52,507 nucleotides of DNA from contig JAHBYC010000018.1 of the NCBI GenBank assembly GCA_019636175.1, positions 1-52,507 on the forward strand, read 5' to 3'. The translations under genes and the position numbers were made by a program. Under the pieces are notes generated by a model. That model worked only from the letters and a program-made list of their open reading frames with translations. It ran no database searches and had not been told where the DNA came from. This DNA comes from Caulobacter sp. (GTDB lineage Bacteria; Pseudomonadota; Alphaproteobacteria; Caulobacterales; Caulobacteraceae). Shown piece by piece: positions 34,303-42,187 of this stretch. The first letter of the stretch is position 1. Each line of letters starts with the position of its first letter.

Positions 34303-36066
34303 TCAGGCGGCCTGTTCGGCGTCAGTGGGGCGGGGGGCGGTGCTGACGGCGGCGGAGACGTGGTCGATCAGGGCCTGCATCTCGACCGGCTTGGTGATGA
34401 AGACATCGACCCCGACCTCGGCCCACTGGCGGCGGTGCTCCGACATGGCGTTGGCGGTCAGGGCCAGGATGGGGGTGGCGACATTGGGGCCGTCGCCGGC
34501 GCGGATGCGGGCCGAGGCCTCGACCCCGCCCATCACCGGCATCTGCATGTCCATCAGGATGACGTCGTAGGGAGCCAGCAGGGCCATGGCCACGGCCTCG
34601 GCGCCGGTGCCGGCCACTGTGACCTCCGCGCCCAGGGGCTCCAGCATCAGCCGCACGATGCGCTGGTTGACCTCGTGATCCTCGGCCAGCAGCACCCGCA
34701 CCGCGCCCTCGGCACGGCCCTCGGCGACGCGGTCGACGGCTCCGGCCGCTCCGGCGGCGGCCTCGGCCAGGACCAGGGGGATTTCCAGCCGGAAGGTCGA
34801 GCCAACGCCCAGCTGGCTGCGCACGGTCAGGGTGCCGCCCATCAGCTCGGCCAGGCGGCGGCTGATCGACAGGCCAAGGCCGGTGCCGCCATGGGCCCGG
34901 GTGACGCCGGTGCTGCCCTGTTCGAAGCTGGAGAACACCCGGGCGGCGGTCTCCTCGTCCATGCCGCTGCCGCTGTCCTCGACCTCGACCCAAAGGCGGG
35001 GGGCGGTCTCGCCATCGGCCTCGATGCAGCCGCCGCGCACGACGATGAAGCCGCGGCGGGTGAACTTGGTGGCGTTGGACAGCAGGTTGGAAATGATCTG
35101 CTGGAAGCGCAGGGGGTCGGTGATCACCCGGTCGGGCAGGTCGCCGGGCTCGAAGGCCAGGGTCACCCCGGCCGGGGTCTTGGCGCTCCACAGCCGGGTG
35201 GCCGCCTGCAGCTTTTCGACCAGATCGAAGGGGCCGGGATCGACCTCCAGCTTGCCGGACTCGATGCGCGACAGGTCGAGCACGTCGTTGAGCAGGCCCA
35301 GCAACACCTCCGAGGCGTTGGCCAGCATGGCGACATGGTCGGCCTGGTCGGGGGTTAGCTCGGTGCGCCGCAACAGGCTGCCGGCGGCGACCACGGCGTT
35401 CATCGGGGTGCGGATCTCGTGGCTGATGGTGGCCAGGAAGTCGCTCTTGGCGGCGTTGGCCTGCTGGGCCTGGTCCAGCGCCGCGGTCATCCTGGCGTTG
35501 GTCTCCTGGATGCGTTTGACCGCCAGCCAGGCGTGCAGCACGAACACCGCCCCGCCGCAGGAGATCAGCGCCATCTGGCCCAGGTCGACCCCGGGCGAGA
35601 TCAACCCCAGGACCAGGGGCGCGCCGAGCAGATAGCCGATATGAGGCCCCAGCACCGGCTTCAGGCCCAGCGGCGTGGGGGCCATCTGCAGGGCGTTGTT
35701 GATGATCGAGCCGGTCATCGACAGGATGGCGAAGACCTTGCCGGCAGGGGAGCCCTGGAACCACAGATAGAGGGCCAGGCCCGAATAGAGGGCGGCGTTG
35801 GCCGCCATGCTGAACAGGAACAGGTTGCGCCGCATGCGGCTGATCGGGGCGGGCGTCGCGGCGCGCAGCGGCTCGGCCAGCAGGTGGTCGATCAACTGGC
35901 CGGCGGTGACGGCGGCGAACCAGATCAGCGGAACGAAGCCGCCGATGAGGAACCAGCTGATGGCCCCGATGAACAGGGCGAACCCGATCCGCGCCCGCAG
36001 GTCGCGCCCGCGATTGGCCGCCATGGCCCGCAGATCGGCTTCGTCACTGGCGCTGATGGTCGTCAT
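34303..36066 (-). CDS. Membrane hybrid sensor histidine kinase with receiver domain
   Basis: The 587-residue protein has about six membrane segments (residues 25-190) with no periplasmic sensor domain. Next come a HisKA dimerisation domain with the phospho-acceptor histidine in SHEIRTPMN (about residue 216), an ATPase domain (NLLSNATKF, DSGSGMD, HGGTGLGLSI), and a C-terminal receiver domain with the acceptor aspartate in ILMDMQMPVMGG (about 500). It probably feeds a separate phosphotransfer protein or works alone. The ATG at 36066 follows a G-rich Shine-Dalgarno. An ATG at 36093 lacks one. No cognate regulator is adjacent and the signal is unknown. Confidence 0.93.
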   Translation of the reverse strand: MTTISASDEADLRAMAANRGRDLRARIGFALFIGAISWFLIGGFVPLIWFAAVTAGQLIDHLLAEPLRAATPAPISRMRRNLFLFSMAANAALYSGLALYLWFQGSPAGKVFAILSMTGSIINNALQMAPTPLGLKPVLGPHIGYLLGAPLVLGLISPGVDLGQMALISCGGAVFVLHAWLAVKRIQETNARMTAALDQAQQANAAKSDFLATISHEIRTPMNAVVAAGSLLRRTELTPDQADHVAMLANASEVLLGLLNDVLDLSRIESGKLEVDPGPFDLVEKLQAATRLWSAKTPAGVTLAFEPGDLPDRVITDPLRFQQIISNLLSNATKFTRRGFIVVRGGCIEADGETAPRLWVEVEDSGSGMDEETAARVFSSFEQGSTGVTRAHGGTGLGLSISRRLAELMGGTLTVRSQLGVGSTFRLEIPLVLAEAAAGAAGAVDRVAEGRAEGAVRVLLAEDHEVNQRIVRLMLEPLGAEVTVAGTGAEAVAMALLAPYDVILMDMQMPVMGGVEASARIRAGDGPNVATPILALTANAMSEHRRQWAEVGVDVFITKPVEMQALIDHVSAAVSTAPRPTDAEQAA

Positions 36067-36167
36067 GGAGAGCCCCCCTGAAGGAAAGCTCATAGCGGCG
36101 GCGACTTAAGGAGCGGTTGAAACGAAGAGCGGTGTTACGGGTGCAGGGGCGGGGGCCCCACCGCAGT

Positions 36168-36213
36168 CCTTCTCCCGGACCCGGGAGAAGGTGGCGCGAA
36201 GCGCCGGATGAGG
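36168..36213 (+). repeat. REP-like element (CCTTCTCCC ... GGATGAGG family)
   Basis: A stem CCTTCTCCCGG/CCGGGAGAAGG is followed by a second small hairpin GGCGCGAAGCGCC and GGATGAGG. Four relatives lie at 41734-42163. A partial inverted piece (CCTCATCCGACCTGCGC) follows at 36270. Confidence 0.85.
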
Positions 36214-36436
36214 ACAGCGCCAGCCTTGGGCGATAGTCCTGAATCCCAACCTTCCAACCCCCGCGCCGCCCTCATCCGACCTGCGCGCGCGGCAGCGGGA
36301 CCTGACGGCGGCGTGCTGGGCGCTGGGGAGTGTGGTGCGGTTGATGGTGCGGGGGTAGGGGGGCTGTTTCCCACGCGGAGGCTCAAATAGAGGCCATGGA
36401 AGGGCTCCTCCGCGCATCTTCAACTGCAACGCTAGA
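36214..36436. other. Non-coding stretch before the low-GC gene
   Basis: No gene is supported here. The stretch holds the partial REP piece near 36270 and an 8-base inverted repeat CGCGGAGG/CCTCCGCG (36374-36381 with 36407-36414, 25-base loop) just past the 3' end of the minus-strand 1259-residue gene. The inverted repeat could act as a transcription end or stability element. It has no T-tract. Confidence 0.5.
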
Positions 36437-39400
36437 TCATCTGCGGAGGTTTTCTTGCGCCGTATCCAGATCGACCCATTTGGCGTGACTTTCCCAATTG
36501 TCCCCGATGCTTTCTAGAAGAGAGGCTGTTCGGGGCCAGCGTTGAGCGGTCTTCGCCCAACCGTAGTAGGAAGCGGCAAGTTCACGTTCTTGATCGCCCC
36601 CGCTATCTGGGTTCCGCCAATGGACACCCCGCATATTGAACCGCTCTGTATTTATGCCGCGTTCAACATCGACCGCCTTCAATTCTTCGATTAGGTCGCG
36701 AACCGCCTCGTGTGGCCAGGCGCCATCGCTCCCAAGCGGTGCGTGGGCGAGCAAGTGGCCAATGTAGATGTCGGTGACCGTGGCCAACTTCGCCTGTGCG
36801 CCGAGATTTCTTGCGCGGAGAACCCACTCCCGAAGTTGCTCGAGATTCACTGCATCCCCGGCATGACCCGGCATGACCTTCAGCTGCGACAGAAGGCGAT
36901 AGCTAGTCTCCGCCCGGGCTACCTCAGCCGCAGATGGAGGGGGCCTTTCCTTCTCACCCGCGTCGGACTCTTTGTCGTCATTGGGGACAAACACGTCGCG
37001 AATGAACATCAAGAAAATCTCTGGGTCTGAAGCCGCCATTTCATGAATGATCAACTTCTCGTCTTCGTGCTCAAGAAGTTTGAAATATGCGTATTCGCGC
37101 CTCGCAATATCAATTCTCGGAACTTCCGGATTATTTCGCAGGGCCTCAAAGGTTTGGCTGAAATGGTAGGTCAGCATTTGATGCGTGCGATCTGGGTGCG
37201 CGTTAAGTTCATCAATGCTGTCATCGAGCAGTTGCAGAAGTAATTCCGGTCGAACTTCCTTCAATTGGCTATAGATCGCTTCAATAGCCGCCGTAGGCCG
37301 ACCAACTGAGCGGTAGTTGTCGATCAGTCGACTGGTAGTTGCCATGTCGCCTTTGAACGACCAAGACGATTTCTGGAGCCAGTACGCCGCGCGCACATCC
37401 TGCCCAAAGCGTTCCGCAAAGTCCCAAGTGTCTGGCTCGTCAGGCAGGCCCGAGAGGGCCGACGCAATAGCCTCAGCAGACCATTGTTGCGTCTTGGCAA
37501 TTCCTGAGAACAGTTCCTTTGCTGCAGAATTTCTTGCAAAATAGCAGTTTAGGAGTGCTCGGGCGAATTGGAGTAGAGCTCCGTCGCTCGATGGAATAGT
37601 CGCAATCAAAAGTTCTTGGATTTCTCCATCGTTCTGAATGGCCGCGGAGGTCGCTTGTGCGACAGCCCAGGGCAACTTTGCGTTCCGCGCGAGCTCCAAG
37701 ATCGAAGCGCGGCCCCCAGGGCCGTCCGCAATAGCCGCCACCGCGTCTTTTCGCGCTTTGGCGACCGCTTCTTCGTCACGCCGGTCTTTGCCAGGGATTT
37801 CTGGAAACCAGTCATCGAATAGCCACCGGACCTTTTCCAGCGGTTGGCTAGGTTCGTACCGTTCGACGAGATCGTCGATCGGTTTGAGCTCTTGTTCGGT
37901 GAGAGCCCATTTTGCGTCCGAAAAGCTCCTATGCCTGTGAAGAAAATCGCGGAGAGCCGTCCACAGGCCGATACGAGCGGGTTCGTCAGCCTGCTCTAAG
38001 AAATCGGAAATCCGCGCCGCTAGCTCAGATCGGCTGTCGGATGAGAAATGGTCGAACCGCCTGGCGAGGGTAGCAAGACGATTAGGATCATTGCCTGCTA
38101 TCCGAATGGCACGACCAACGACTTCGTTCTGCATCGCCCACACTGCTGAATAAGTGAGGCGGCCTTGAGATGTGCCGACATCCCGAAATTTTGGCCTAGA
38201 CGTAGGGGACGAGACATCGCGTTGACTGGGTAAGATTTTAGTTAGCAGCTCCCAGCCGATACTTGGTTCAGAAGCAAGAATTTCGTCCAGCGCTGCCAGT
38301 CGCGCTTCGGGGCCAGCCATCGTTTGCGGCATCCACGGCAGAAATATCTCGCGCAAACTGCCGATCGGACGGTTCCCAAGATCGCCGCCCGGATCGATAC
38401 GCGCCAATCCGGCTAGCACCAGGGTGACACGTCGAAAATACCGCGGGTCCCAAGCTAGCGTCTCCAACGCGAACAGCAGTCCAGTGTGTGGGCTGGAGGG
38501 CCCAAATATCCCCTGGTTGCGGTCCTTGAAAATTCCCGAAAGCATCGCCTCATCGCCCTCGAGCATCTTCTCGAGGGCCTTAAGCAAAGGGTCGGGTGCC
38601 GCCTCCATCAAGACCGGCAGTTGCCCTCGCAAACTCTCGATCAACCGATGGTCAGCGGCCAGCCCCGGCAGTTTTTCAACGATGCGGTTGACCCAATCTT
38701 GAGGGCTGCCAGCCTCCATGACGACGCCAGCTTGCTCATGGAGAACCGCCAATACGAGCAGAGTGTTGGCGATGCCATCCCGCAGCCATGAACTGAATTG
38801 GGCTAGGCGCTCGCTTTCCCGCTCGTACGGCGCGTCCGGGTCCGGCACAGGATTGGGTTCCGAGAATACGAGAGTCGCTGCCTGCTCCAATCTCGCGAAA
38901 TCCGTCTCAGTAAGCAGGTGTCCCAAGTGAATGAAGGCATCCACCGGCGCGCGCATGGTCCAGACGGTCCCCGCCTGGTCGATTGGTGGGTCTTGCAGGC
39001 GCTTCAGTGGTAGCAAGTCGCGCTCTATCGCGACATGATCCTTCGCCCCTCCGGTCAATAGTTGGAGGATGTCGCGATCGGGGGTGTTTCGTGTGTCCCA
39101 AGCCCCCGCGAGCATAGGCGCGATCAGCACTTCTGCCTTGTGAACCCATGCAGGAAGCTCAACATTTCCAGCAGGAATCTGGCGCCCAAGAATGGTAACG
39201 CTGCGACCAGATGTTCGGGCCAACTCCGTCGCTTTGACCTCGTCAAACCCCATCGTTTGGATCGCCTTCCCAAAGGTGAAGGTATCCGGCCGATTGAGCG
39301 CTTGGTGGTCACGCTTCGGCGTGTCGGCCCCAGCGGAGATCAGCGTAGTGCCCTTGGACGCAAGCAGCCCCGAAAGCTGGTTGGCTTGCGCGCGGGGAAA

Positions 39401-40216
39401 AAAGATCGACGAGCTCCGTGAGGCGAGCAGGCGACCCGCCTCCTCCGTGTCCAATATAATCGTCCGAGATTCCAAGAACAGGCGCGTTTCCGGATCGGCG
39501 TTCCGAATTGCCGCGATTGCGAACGCAATCACTTCTTCTGGCGAATCTGCAGCGTAGCGCAGCGTCGCATCGGTCGTAAGGAGTTGTGAAATTAGTTCTT
39601 CAGCTTGCTTCGAGCGCGACGCCAGAAGTACTTCCTCGGCTAGGCGGGGAGAGAATTTAGCCGAGTACTCATCCCAGAATTCATCAGCGCTGCGGGCGCC
39701 GTACTTCGGGACCAACTGAAGCTCAGAACGCGCATATCGGGCAGCTACCGCCGGCCTCTCCATCAACCACGACGCAAGCTGAACGCCATCGATGTATCGT
39801 ATGTCCTTCCAGCCGGAGCGGAGGGCCGATTGTTCGGTGATCCAGTCCGGCAGCTTCTTGAACTGATTGTCCCAAGTCCACGGAGTGACGAACACAAATG
39901 TTGTGTTCGCACGCTGCGCCGCATCCAGTTCGGTGGTTCTCTTCTTAAGGTCGGTTTCAGCCTTCTTTTGCGCCTTTTCGGAAACACCAAACTCCCAAAC
40001 GGACTCGCCGTCTGGAACGAACGGGGGTGACCCGACAGCGGACAGCCAGCCGTCGAAGCCTCGGACCTGTCCTTTGTTGCCGGATGGAAACCGAAAGGAG
40101 CTGACGCTAGGTGCTGTTGCGCGGATCAGGTCGCTAATCAGTGCGGGAAATTCGACTCGCGCGGAAAGTCGATGTTTGGCCCAGTTCTCGAGGTCTGAGG
40201 GGTCTATCCACTTCAA
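36437..40216 (-). CDS. Large uncharacterised protein with nuclease-like N-terminus
   Basis: The 1259-residue protein is not from a family I can name. Residues 1-160 look like a restriction-endonuclease-like fold. D55 (GFDGW) and E75 (SVWEFG) are followed by a lysine-rich helix (K81, K84, K85), the strand TTFVFVTP (105-112), and WKDIRYIDGVQLASWLMERP, where a strand and helix end such folds. Residues 205-400 have alternating strands and helices recalling a STAND-type ATPase (ADSPEEVIAFAIAAI, TLISAGADTP, ARTSGRSVTILGRQI), but no Walker A loop was found. Residues 400-1259 are helix-rich, repeat-like and without membrane segments. The start is TTG with GAGG spaced 8 bases. GC is about 47 % in 180 counted bases, against 65-70 % nearby, so it was probably acquired. 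A single-gene defence role is an inference. Confidence 0.7.
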   Translation of the reverse strand: MKWIDPSDLENWAKHRLSARVEFPALISDLIRATAPSVSSFRFPSGNKGQVRGFDGWLSAVGSPPFVPDGESVWEFGVSEKAQKKAETDLKKRTTELDAAQRANTTFVFVTPWTWDNQFKKLPDWITEQSALRSGWKDIRYIDGVQLASWLMERPAVAARYARSELQLVPKYGARSADEFWDEYSAKFSPRLAEEVLLASRSKQAEELISQLLTTDATLRYAADSPEEVIAFAIAAIRNADPETRLFLESRTIILDTEEAGRLLASRSSSIFFPRAQANQLSGLLASKGTTLISAGADTPKRDHQALNRPDTFTFGKAIQTMGFDEVKATELARTSGRSVTILGRQIPAGNVELPAWVHKAEVLIAPMLAGAWDTRNTPDRDILQLLTGGAKDHVAIERDLLPLKRLQDPPIDQAGTVWTMRAPVDAFIHLGHLLTETDFARLEQAATLVFSEPNPVPDPDAPYERESERLAQFSSWLRDGIANTLLVLAVLHEQAGVVMEAGSPQDWVNRIVEKLPGLAADHRLIESLRGQLPVLMEAAPDPLLKALEKMLEGDEAMLSGIFKDRNQGIFGPSSPHTGLLFALETLAWDPRYFRRVTLVLAGLARIDPGGDLGNRPIGSLREIFLPWMPQTMAGPEARLAALDEILASEPSIGWELLTKILPSQRDVSSPTSRPKFRDVGTSQGRLTYSAVWAMQNEVVGRAIRIAGNDPNRLATLARRFDHFSSDSRSELAARISDFLEQADEPARIGLWTALRDFLHRHRSFSDAKWALTEQELKPIDDLVERYEPSQPLEKVRWLFDDWFPEIPGKDRRDEEAVAKARKDAVAAIADGPGGRASILELARNAKLPWAVAQATSAAIQNDGEIQELLIATIPSSDGALLQFARALLNCYFARNSAAKELFSGIAKTQQWSAEAIASALSGLPDEPDTWDFAERFGQDVRAAYWLQKSSWSFKGDMATTSRLIDNYRSVGRPTAAIEAIYSQLKEVRPELLLQLLDDSIDELNAHPDRTHQMLTYHFSQTFEALRNNPEVPRIDIARREYAYFKLLEHEDEKLIIHEMAASDPEIFLMFIRDVFVPNDDKESDAGEKERPPPSAAEVARAETSYRLLSQLKVMPGHAGDAVNLEQLREWVLRARNLGAQAKLATVTDIYIGHLLAHAPLGSDGAWPHEAVRDLIEELKAVDVERGINTERFNMRGVHWRNPDSGGDQERELAASYYGWAKTAQRWPRTASLLESIGDNWESHAKWVDLDTAQENLRR

Positions 40217-40466
40217 AGTGTGAGCCTCGTTTCTTCAGATCGTTCTCGGTGGCGTGCAACGGGAAGTAGGGGCGATATCCCTCTCATGCAATGTTTGAGG
40301 CTCTTTCCCGCGTGTCATCCCTCCGCTAACACTGCTCCCCACACCGCGCCGCCCGTCTTGCGCCATTCCGGGCGGTGTTTCGTAATCCTTTCCCGCGTCG
40401 ACGCTCCGCCTGGGGCATGGGTCCGTGGGGCAATGGCGTGGGTGTCTGGTTCAGAGAGGCCATTGC
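40217..40466. other. Divergent intergenic region
   Basis: This gap holds the start regions of the minus-strand 1259-residue gene and of the plus-strand M20 hydrolase gene. Two near-repeats (TTTCCCGCGT ... CTCCGC at 40303 and 40395) and an inverted repeat CCGCCCG/CGGGCGG near 40350-40376 were seen. No coding frame is supported, and no promoter could be assigned with confidence. Confidence 0.4.
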
Positions 40467-41729
40467 ATGCAGGTGACGCCACAGGAGCGTATCGTTCTGG
40501 ACTCCATCGCCGAGCGCGGCGACGAGATCGTCTCTCGGGCGGTGGGCTGGTGCGGGGCCAATAGCGGGAGCCGGAACCTGGAGGGACTTCAAGCGGCGCT
40601 GGGTCTGTTGACCGGGGTGTGGGGCGATGCCTTGCCCGGGGCGGTGCTCAGCCATGAGGCGCTGGCGCCGACCATCGAGATCGCCGCCGACGGGCGGGAG
40701 ATGGAGCACAGCCCGCCGCCGTCGCTGCTGCTGACCATGCGGCCCGAGGCGCCGGTGCAGGTGGTGCTTACTGGTCATTACGACACCGTCTTCCCCGCCT
40801 CCAGCCCGTTCCAGAGCGTGGTCGCCCGCGCCGACGGGGCGCTGAACGGGCCGGGGATCGCCGACATGAAGGGCGGCATCTCGGTGATGCTGGCGGCGCT
40901 GGAAGGGTTCGAGCGGTTCGAGGGGCGCGAGGCGGTGGGCTGGCGGGTGCTGCTGAGCCCCGATGAGGAGATCGGCTCGCTGGGCAGCGGGGCGGTGCTG
41001 AGCCGCATCGGGCGGCTGGGCCATGTGGGGATGACCTATGAGCCGGCCCTGGCCGACGGGACGCTGGCCGGGGCGCGCAAGGGCAGCGGCAATTTCCATG
41101 TGAAGATCACCGGCCGGTCGGCTCACGCCGGGCGGGCCTTCGCCGAGGGGCGCAACGCCATCACCGCCGCGGCGCGGATCGCCGGCGAGCTGGACGCCCT
41201 GAACGGCCAGCGCGAGGGGGTGACGGTGAATGTGGCGCGGATCGACGGCGGCTCGGCCCTGAACGTGGTGCCGGACGTGGCGGTGGTGCGGTTCAACGTC
41301 CGCTATCCCGACGCCGAGGGGGCGAAGTGGCTGGAAGGCGGGGTCGAGCGGGCCTGCGGCTGCGCGGCCAACACCCTGTCGGGGCGCGATGGTCTGGGGA
41401 TCAGCCTGCACGGCGGGCTGACGCGGCCGGCCAAGCCGTTCAACGCGGCGCAGACGGCGCTGTTCGGCAAGCTGAAGGAGGTCGGCGGCCTGCTGGGCCA
41501 GGAGATCGCCTGGTCGCCGTCCGGCGGGGTGTGCGAGGGCAACAACCTGTTCGCGGCGGGCCTGCCGGGGGTGGATACCCTGGGCGTACGCGGCGGGGAC
41601 ATCCACAGCGAGGCGGAGTTCGCCTGGCCGGACAGCTTTGCCGAGCGGGCGCAGCTGTCGGCGCTGATGCTGATGAAGATGGCGAGCGGGGAAGTGGACG
41701 CGCGAGGGATTCGGGGGTTGATGGACTAG
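40467..41729 (+). CDS. M20 family metallohydrolase, possible AstE substitute
   Basis: The 420-residue enzyme belongs to the M20 zinc peptidase/deacylase family (carboxypeptidase G2 and ArgE/DapE relatives). Metal ligands are seen in LTGHYDTVFP (about residue 105), GIADMKGG (about 130) and SPDEEIGS (about 165), with a dimerisation domain inserted (about 205-325) and a final metal histidine in DIHSEAEF. The ATG at 40467 has GAGAGG upstream. It precedes astA and astD in the same orientation. AstE, which cleaves succinylglutamate, is absent, and M20 enzymes cleave N-acyl amino acids, so replacement of AstE is plausible but unproven. Confidence 0.85.
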   Translation: MQVTPQERIVLDSIAERGDEIVSRAVGWCGANSGSRNLEGLQAALGLLTGVWGDALPGAVLSHEALAPTIEIAADGREMEHSPPPSLLLTMRPEAPVQVVLTGHYDTVFPASSPFQSVVARADGALNGPGIADMKGGISVMLAALEGFERFEGREAVGWRVLLSPDEEIGSLGSGAVLSRIGRLGHVGMTYEPALADGTLAGARKGSGNFHVKITGRSAHAGRAFAEGRNAITAAARIAGELDALNGQREGVTVNVARIDGGSALNVVPDVAVVRFNVRYPDAEGAKWLEGGVERACGCAANTLSGRDGLGISLHGGLTRPAKPFNAAQTALFGKLKEVGGLLGQEIAWSPSGGVCEGNNLFAAGLPGVDTLGVRGGDIHSEAEFAWPDSFAERAQLSALMLMKMASGEVDARGIRGLMD

Positions 41730-41733
41730 GTTT

Positions 41734-42163
41734 CCTTCTCCCCTTGGGGGAGAAGGTGGGCCCGAAGGGCTCGGATGAGGGGTTGATGACCGGGGCCGCC
41801 GACATGACTGGTGGGGTTCTCAATCCCTGTCCGCCGGTGTGACCCCTCATCCGGCGCTGCGCGCCACCTTCTCCCGCAGGGGGGGAAGGGACCCTGGCGG
41901 CGGCTTCGCGGCTGGTGCGCTGCATCCCTGGGTCCCGGATCGCGCAAGGCGCGTCCGGGATGACGGGAAGGGGGGAGACCCCTCATCCGGCGCTGCGCGC
42001 CACCTTCTCCCGCAGGGGGAGAAGGAACCCTGGCGGCGGCTTCGACTTTGGGCGCCCGTCGGGGTAGTTAGAGGAAGAAAATTGCTGGAGAGTCGCGCGG
42101 GCGGGGCCGGTGCGACCCCTCATCCGGCCCTTTGGGCCACCTTCTCCCGCAAGGGGAGAAGGG
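41734..42163. repeat. Cluster of four REP-like elements
   Basis: The 458-base gap before astA holds one plus-oriented copy (41734-41780) and three minus-oriented copies (41843-41889, 41979-42025 and 42115-42163) of the CCTTCTCCC/GGATGAGG element. Two copies, with the following CCCTGGCGGCGGCTTCG, form a direct repeat of about 69 bases with a 136-base period. A different hairpin (TCCCGGATCGCG/CGCGTCCGGGA) lies at 41934-41961. Spacers are unequal and arms vary, so this is not a CRISPR. Confidence 0.85.
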
Positions 42164-42187
42164 ACAGGTAAGCGAAAGAAGATCTGC

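What the first reader, a model, noticed from the sequence alone, without database searches (positions are those of the whole stretch)
36437..40216. Single-gene 1259-residue protein with nuclease-like head and degenerate STAND-like middle
Seen: D55, E75 and a lysine-rich helix are followed by the strands TTFVFVTP and IRYIDG, the layout of a PD-(D/E)XK-type nuclease. The middle region recalls a STAND ATPase but no Walker A loop was found. About 850 helical residues follow. Known: phage-defence proteins often join a nuclease effector to a sensor with long helical repeats. Inference: a one-gene defence or DNA-sensing system in which the usual ATP switch has been lost or altered.
Basis: partly seen in the sequence, partly recalled or inferred. 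Interest (0 to 1): 0.82.

Follow-up and report, generated by a model that had tools for sequence, protein, structure and literature searches.

The report
Nuclease immune sensor without ATP switch
This bacterial gene encodes a large protein that looks like a one-piece virus alarm, with a DNA-cutting head on a long sensor arm, related to the known phage-defence protein PD-lambda-4 but with the ATP-binding switch between the two worn away in the relatives examined.

Summary
An intact 1259-codon minus-strand gene (40216..36437) encodes a confidently modelled protein with three parts: a PD-(D/E)XK-type nuclease fold (1-167), an AAA+/STAND-like fold (169-351) with winged helix, and a long alpha-solenoid. 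None of 177 aligned relatives has a Walker A in the P-loop slot, which reads ADSPEEVI here; the Walker-B Asp is Arg in 131. D55, E75 and K85 are kept in all 173 that have the nuclease.

New here: the family is a distant, collinear relative of PD-lambda-4_A, a named anti-phage protein (profile-profile E 2e-15 over 1037 columns); four full-length homologues of that protein all have an intact P-loop. Relatives swap the N-terminal effector (HTH+nuclease, TIR, Cap4-like, SIR2, HEPN-like, or a short motif shared with a small upstream protein), and one clade seems to have dropped the nucleotide-binding domain. The gene is sporadic, low-GC, found on plasmids and viral contigs, and sits where two sister genomes carry other cassettes, one with a methyltransferase and Vsr.

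Best reading: a phage-defence sensor-nuclease working without canonical ATP switching. Defence is strongly implied, not shown. Inactive STANDs are known elsewhere (iSTAND, BrxB), so: new variant of a known kind.

The parts
36437..40216 (-). whole gene, 1259 aa, TTG start, stop at 36437-36439; GC 57.2% against 69.2% for the rest of the window, GC3 0.62 against mostly 0.8-0.9 in neighbours
39716..40216 (-). residues 1-167: PD-(D/E)XK-type nuclease fold
40052..40054 (-). D55, first catalytic acid of the nuclease
   Evidence: 173 of 173 rows with the nuclease; aligns with D55 of PD-lambda-4_A
39992..39994 (-). E75, second catalytic acid
   Evidence: 173 of 173; aligns with Q78 of the FQAK motif of PD-lambda-4_A
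39962..39964 (-). K85, proposed migrated catalytic lysine
   Evidence: 173 of 173; position E75+2 is G (164) or S (9) instead of K
39164..39712 (-). residues 169-351: AAA+/STAND-like nucleotide-binding-domain fold with lid helices
39527..39550 (-). residues 223-230 ADSPEEVI: slot of the P-loop GLSGVGKT of PD-lambda-4_A, motif lost
   Evidence: ungapped hhalign map; E228 in 173 of 176 filled rows; segment 218-232 is 15 residues in 172 of 176
39392..39394 (-). R275: slot of the Walker-B Asp (D301 of PD-lambda-4_A)
   Evidence: R in 131, K in 7, D in 6 of 177 rows; map
38915..39151 (-). residues 356-434: winged-helix-like domain with W373 and D380 in 177 of 177 rows
   Evidence: secondary structure, conservation, CED-4/NRC4 alignments reaching this part
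36440..38791 (-). residues 476-1259: alpha-solenoid, presumed sensor arm
   Evidence: AF2 model pLDDT 90.9; only generic HEAT/importin-like matches in the rows shown
34303..36093 (-). flank: hybrid histidine kinase, site marker, not part of the system
40425..41729 (+). flank: M20 peptidase at the head of the ast cluster, site marker, not part of the system

Best explanation
A single-gene phage-defence sensor-effector related to PD-lambda-4_A. The C-terminal alpha-solenoid binds a phage-derived ligand (inferred; ligand unknown). Binding rearranges the winged helix and the P-loop-less STAND-like domain, which here acts as a rigid coupler or dimer/oligomer interface instead of an ATP/ADP switch (inferred). 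This brings N-terminal PD-(D/E)XK nuclease heads together or uncovers them, so that they cut DNA with D55, E75 and probably K85 (residues shown, activity inferred), stopping the phage or killing the cell (inferred). Shown by computation: nuclease-like fold and kept active-site residues, AAA+/STAND-like fold, loss of both Walker motifs across the relatives examined, homology to PD-lambda-4_A, effector exchange, and mobile, sporadic distribution.
For: Models of both overlapping halves have mean pLDDT 90.9. Foldseek's first three matches for residues 1-640 are Avs3 and Avs4 chains (E 1.1e-4 to 5.8e-4), then SAMD9 and CED-4. VIA places 1-167 on MspJI/FokI and 169-351 on AAA+ domains. D55, E75, K85: 173 of 173; no Walker A in the P-loop slot in 177 rows. 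Profile-profile match to PD-lambda-4_A: E 2.2e-15 over 1037 columns; nuclease block alone 9.6e-5, middle block 1.5e-3, core 5.6e-13; five mismatched-block controls 0.16-0.72. PADLOC PD-Lambda-4_A hits on two of eight members scanned. Effectors exchanged on one core: TIR, SIR2, Cap4-like, HEPN-like. One clade appears to lack the middle domain, which argues that the core can work without NTP switching. Sporadic: 3 of 61 relatives and 10 of 289 class genomes, own genome counted in both. On 23 plasmid records, 11 typed conjugative, and 12 viral contigs.
Confidence: 0.6

Rival explanations
1. A Type IV-like restriction enzyme: the long C-terminal part reads DNA (a modified base or structure) directly, and the nuclease cuts nearby. 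There is no signalling step; the STAND-like fold is a relic used as a spacer.
For: The nuclease folds listed for residues 1-167 are MspJI (modification-dependent, recalled) and FokI. One sister genome has a C5-methyltransferase and Vsr in the same slot, so restriction-type genes use this site.
Against: No known DNA-reading domain was found by Pfam. The same core carries TIR, SIR2 and HEPN-like effectors that do not need a DNA-reading arm. The relationship to PD-lambda-4_A with its full P-loop points to a receptor ancestry.
Confidence: 0.15
2. The inactive STAND domain itself is the sensor, a nucleic-acid receptor as proposed for iSTAND modules; it may bind phage RNA or DNA and release the nuclease, the solenoid being a scaffold.
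For: Passages of PMC12839542 and PMC8195603 propose a sensing, nucleic-acid-binding role for other inactive STANDs. E228 and R345 are kept (173 of 176 and 177 of 177), so the domain is under constraint.
Against: One clade of the same core appears to do without the domain. In the 16-row wide alignment the listed invariant columns are D55 and then only columns from 369 onward, i.e. in the winged helix and solenoid; some of those rows lack the middle, which biases this.
Confidence: 0.15
3. ATP control is kept but moved elsewhere: a partner ATPase or an unrecognised nucleotide site in the same fold drives activation.
For: iSTAND systems work with MoxR ATPases (PMC7159879, passages). The domain is conserved and not decaying.
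Against: No protein family recurs among nearest neighbours beyond 5 of 146 proteins, and none of the 25 families shown is a MoxR or vWA family; 83 of 108 matched families were not shown, so a rare partner cannot be excluded.
Confidence: 0.07
4. Not a defence gene: a housekeeping or regulatory nuclease-like protein.
For: No phenotype is known, and several plasmid copies are named helix-turn-helix regulators or HigA antitoxins.
Against: Sporadic presence, low GC, mobile carriage, effector exchange, PD-lambda-4_A homology.
Confidence: 0.03

Closest known systems
PD-lambda-4 (protein A; PADLOC PDLC03991; Vassallo et al. 2022)
   Same: Same length class and collinear from residue 23 to 1180: nuclease-like N-terminus with D55 in register, STAND-like middle, helical C-terminus.
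   Different: Four of four full-length PD-lambda-4_A homologues keep a GxxGxGKT Walker A, an Asp Walker B and an F-Q-x-K motif; the finding's family has lost both Walker motifs and has E..G with K85. About 15% identity.
AVAST/Avs STAND sensors (Avs3, Avs4) and animal/plant NLR-type STANDs (CED-4, NRC4)
   Same: N-terminal effector, central STAND, long helical C-terminal part; Avs chains are the first Foldseek matches of residues 1-640.
   Different: Avs proteins use an active STAND ATPase (general knowledge and a passage of PMC12724215); this one has no P-loop, and the solenoid gave no specific match.
iSTAND, iSTAND2 and BREX BrxB/PglW inactive STAND modules
   Same: STAND fold with eroded Walker motifs in a defence setting.
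   Different: Those are parts of multi-gene MoxR-vWA or BREX systems in the passages I read (PMC7159879, PMC8195603, PMC12839542); this is a single gene with nuclease and solenoid fused, relatable to PD-lambda-4_A.
MspJI and FokI nuclease domains
   Different: The lysine two residues after the second acid is absent; no target-recognition domain found by Pfam.
DSR1/DSR2-type SIR2 plus helical-repeat sensors (recalled)
   Same: An effector on a helical sensor without an ATPase, as in the SIR2-bearing relative P0248.
   Different: Sequence relation was not tested; the window's protein has a nuclease and a STAND remnant.

Membership tests
PD-lambda-4 protein A | full-length collinear homology | tested here: met
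   hhalign probability 98.5, E 2.2e-15, 1037 columns; block E-values 9.6e-5, 1.5e-3 and 5.6e-13 against 0.16-0.72 for five controls, but middle-block probability only 17%
PD-lambda-4 protein A | direct hit of the PADLOC model on the window protein | tested here: not met
   0 families at E up to 10; two of eight other members hit weakly
PD-lambda-4 protein A | intact P-loop NTPase | tested here: not met
   slot reads ADSPEEVI; 0 of 177 rows have Walker A there
PD-lambda-4 protein A | second gene of the system next to it | not tested
   the partner's identity was not established; PADLOC scans of three window neighbours named no PD-Lambda-4 family
Avs (AVAST) | effector - STAND - helical repeat architecture | tested here: met
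Avs (AVAST) | active STAND ATPase with Walker A and B | tested here: not met
Avs (AVAST) | recognition of terminase or portal protein | not testable with these tools
   needs experiment
PD-(D/E)XK nucleases | core alpha/beta fold | tested here: met
PD-(D/E)XK nucleases | D ... (D/E)-x-K catalytic motif | tested here: inconclusive
   D55 and E75 kept, K at +2 absent, K85 kept in 173 of 173
iSTAND / iSTAND2 systems | inactive STAND domain | tested here: inconclusive
   an inactive STAND-like fold is present, but no comparison with iSTAND profiles was made
iSTAND / iSTAND2 systems | MoxR and vWA partner genes | tested here: inconclusive
   absent from the 25 most frequent families of 146 nearest neighbours; the other 83 of 108 families were not shown

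The most novel reading that the evidence does not exclude
A widespread lineage of STAND/NLR-type immune sensors has given up nucleotide switching in recorded steps: PD-lambda-4_A relatives with an intact P-loop, then this family with the fold kept but both Walker motifs erased, then a clade with the domain deleted and Cap4-, SIR2- or HEPN-like effectors or a short shared motif joined straight to the winged helix and solenoid. If so, the sensor core alone transmits the signal, and NTP hydrolysis is dispensable for this kind of immune receptor.
Probability: 0.45. Interest if true: 0.8.

Novelty: new variant of a known kind. Interest (0 to 1): 0.62.

Why it matters
STAND/NLR immune receptors, from bacteria to animals and plants, are explained by an ATP/ADP switch. 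Here is a large family in bacteria and archaea, whose window member hits no Pfam, PADLOC or significant NCBIfam model, in which the switch is erased while effector and sensor are kept, together with a P-loop-bearing relative and relatives that seem to lack the domain. The set is a natural experiment on whether receptor activation needs nucleotide exchange, and a candidate source of unannotated defence genes on plasmids and prophages.

Tried and rejected
Pfam and PADLOC scans of the window protein gave nothing, NCBIfam one hit of E 0.21, PDB-by-sequence nothing under 0.8; a profile search of the PDB gave nothing under 0.1. A scan of viral contigs with the single sequence found nothing; the profile found 12. 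The viral structure library gave no match under 0.001. The solenoid matched only generic HEAT/importin-like proteins in the rows shown; that no Avs chain was listed there is not used as evidence.

P-loop lookalikes: among 159 sequences [AG]-x4-GK[ST] occurs 22 times, against 8.0 expected from shuffles. Seven start with G and lie at 76, 77 or 119 in the nuclease, around WEfG...K85; the rest are scattered. In the 177-row set three such strings lie in the middle segment (P0050, P0084, P0094), downstream of the P-loop slot and not conserved; rejected.

A conserved partner gene: no neighbour family recurs in more than 5 of 146 proteins (AbiEi). A far-neighbour control had no family in more than 1 of 115. 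The output gives no count of proteins with any defence hit, so I claim no enrichment. I gave 146 of 159 near ORFs and 115 of 121 far ORFs; the dropped ones are from viral-contig loci L082-L093, and L083 and L086-L088 had been skipped as near-copies. The ORFs are my own mechanical calls.

Rooting with PD-lambda-4_A: the order in which the switch-less groups split is unresolved. In the first tree the clade lacking the domain sits beside P0070, a long branch. Both trees are quick searches without bootstrap. The direction 'eroded then deleted' is therefore inference.

The idea that GiPD474 (PMC12724215) is this family was dropped: it has a Walker A and a ParA-like domain (passages).

Selection caveats: the 177-row set was gathered with a pattern that asks for G-x-D and a following E, so D55 and E75 are partly preselected. 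I read the starts of all 20 proteins outside every pattern and found no nuclease-type member lacking D or E; of 43 short-N-terminus proteins I printed 25. K85 was not in the pattern. Protein lists are the best 120 of 285 and 120 of 772, so architecture counts are not frequencies.

Full report
WHAT IS THERE. The finding's coordinates are one intact minus-strand ORF of 1259 codons with a TTG start and GAGG eight bases upstream. Its GC is 57.2% against 69.2% for the rest of the window, and its third-position GC is 0.62 where most neighbours have 0.8 to 0.9. That suggests recent arrival. The genome (3.17 Mb, 91 contigs, 87% complete) has one copy. Pfam and PADLOC give nothing, NCBIfam one hit of E 0.21 far below its cut-off, the PDB by sequence nothing under 0.8. 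A protein search lists 73 entries including the window's own; full-length ones reach 46% identity, and the list goes down to 25%.

THE ACTIVE SITE AND THE LOST SWITCH. In 177 aligned relatives from a database clustered at 90% identity, D55, E75 and K85 are present in 173 of 173 rows that have the nuclease; the other four are two TIR proteins and two shorter ones without it. D55 and E75 were partly preselected by the pattern that collected the rows; K85 was not. The residue two after E75 is Gly (164) or Ser (9), so the usual E-x-K lysine is missing and K85 is the candidate replacement. No row has a Walker A in the P-loop slot; the segment 218-232 is 15 residues in 172 of 176 rows, and E228 is kept in 173 of 176 filled rows.

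THE RELATIVE WITH AN INTACT SWITCH. PADLOC's PD-Lambda-4_A model hits two of eight relatives scanned, weakly but in register (P0057, 8.6e-6; P0066, 4.2e-5). I sought that model in 398 genomes of the phylum: 9 have a match. L127 matches it over its whole length with 2561 bits. Four full-length homologues (L127, L128, L129, L133) all have a Walker A (for example ITGLSGVGKTR) and a D-containing Walker B. Profile-profile comparison with the finding's family gives probability 98.5, E 2.2e-15, 1037 columns, collinear from residue 23 to 1180. Blocks tested alone: nuclease 9.6e-5 (probability 58.5%), middle 1.5e-3 (17%), middle plus winged helix 3e-3 (10.5%), core 5.6e-13 (97.9%); five mismatched-block controls give 0.16 to 0.72. 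In the alignment D55 meets D55, E75 meets Q78 and G77 meets K80 of the FQAK motif. The P-loop GLSGVGKT falls without a gap on ADSPEEVI, and the Walker-B Asp falls on R275, which is Arg in 131 and Asp in 6 of 177 rows. So the finding's family is a distant relative of a named defence protein in which both NTP motifs are erased. For PD-lambda-4 I saw passages of Vassallo et al. 2022 (PMC9519451; lambda-4 is not discussed in those shown) and one table passage of PMC10952713 that lists it under P-loop NTPase.

EFFECTOR EXCHANGE. Of 296 distinct proteins collected, sorted by what precedes the core: 167 by pattern plus 6 by reading have the nuclease, some behind a HigA-like HTH. Two have TIR (TIR_2 1.4e-5 for P0073, 26 bits under a cut-off of 28). 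Sixty-six by pattern plus some by reading have a Cap4/DUF4297-like start (STGGGG..FE..VQ; label recalled, no Pfam hit for the one tested, L085). One has SIR2 (PF13289, 3.8e-11) and one a HEPN-like start (DUF4145, 0.0016, below cut-off). Forty-three have a short or truncated N-terminus. Short-start proteins carry a motif like QNHSGTGHNVAGD, and in two loci a 106- or 107-residue upstream protein ends in the same kind of motif, which recalls amyloid or EAD pairing (inference). On a quick tree of the core, TIR lies among nuclease members, and the proteins without the middle domain form one group; the order of splits at the root is unresolved. That they lack the domain rests on N-terminal length and alignment, not on models.

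SETTING. Present in 3 of 61 near relatives and 10 of 289 genomes drawn from the class, own genome counted in both. It is on 23 plasmid records, 11 typed conjugative, and 12 viral contigs. The Cap4-type relative is in 8 of 5426 E. coli genomes (7 nearly whole), in the one I opened beside phage genes, an integrase and tRNA-Thr. Of four plasmid copies opened, one lies among SIR2, abortive-infection, RES-Xre and AbiEii genes. At the window's site, of five sister loci examined two (L121, L122) keep TamB, DUF1428, histidine kinase, M20 and AstA, but between kinase and M20 one has an HATPase, a 315-residue protein, a C5-methyltransferase and Vsr, and the other a 466 + 382 residue pair; the pair has no PADLOC match and the 382-residue protein no Pfam match. 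In two others (L124, L126) TamB lies within about 200 bases of M20, an empty site; L123 has a 3.5-kb gap that I did not read. The only other same-genus copy, in G030 (L125), shows none of these flank genes. No neighbour family recurs in more than 5 of 146 nearest proteins, so the gene appears to act alone.

READING. I commit to a one-gene immune sensor-nuclease working without canonical ATP switching (0.6). Shown: fold, kept catalytic residues, lost Walker motifs, homology, modularity, mobility. Inferred: ligand sensing by the solenoid, nuclease release, cell protection. Inactive STANDs are known in MoxR-vWA and BREX systems (passages of PMC7159879, PMC8195603, PMC12839542). I found no description of this single-gene family in paper searches, which cover open-licence papers only.

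Noticed in passing
window 41732-42170: Repeat element between the M20 and astA genes with many partly palindromic copies across the genome and genus; REP/BIME-like.
   Followed up: no
L121:12147-16265 and L122:2942-5487: The histidine kinase-M20 interval holds other cassettes in two sister genomes: HATPase + 315 aa + C5-methyltransferase + Vsr in one, an unknown 466 + 382 aa pair in the other; a possible defence hotspot.
   Followed up: partly
L092:7555-7878 and L096:9579-9899: A 106- or 107-residue protein with a hydrophobic start and a C-terminal QNHSGTGDN motif, matching the N-terminal motif of the next gene, a core-only relative; looks like an effector-receptor pair joined by an amyloid-like motif.
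   Followed up: partly
L129:538-5259: One PD-lambda-4_A homologue (1573 aa) also begins with an HTH-like stretch, as some members of the finding's family do; a parallel fusion.
   Followed up: no
plasmid hits H1-H15: Most of these copies are annotated as helix-turn-helix regulators or a HigA-family antitoxin, a label that hides a protein of about 1350 residues with nuclease and STAND-like parts.
   Followed up: partly
L086:644-4189 and E. coli hits H22-H29: A 1182-residue relative with Cap4/DUF4297-like head, at least 99% identical in 8 of 5426 E. coli genomes and in four IMG/VR contigs (L086, L087, L088, L093), annotated hypothetical in E. coli.
   Followed up: partly
window 36106-36429: A 107-codon minus-strand ORF without family match that overlaps DNA similar to stretches of sister genomes; probably not a gene.
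   Followed up: partly
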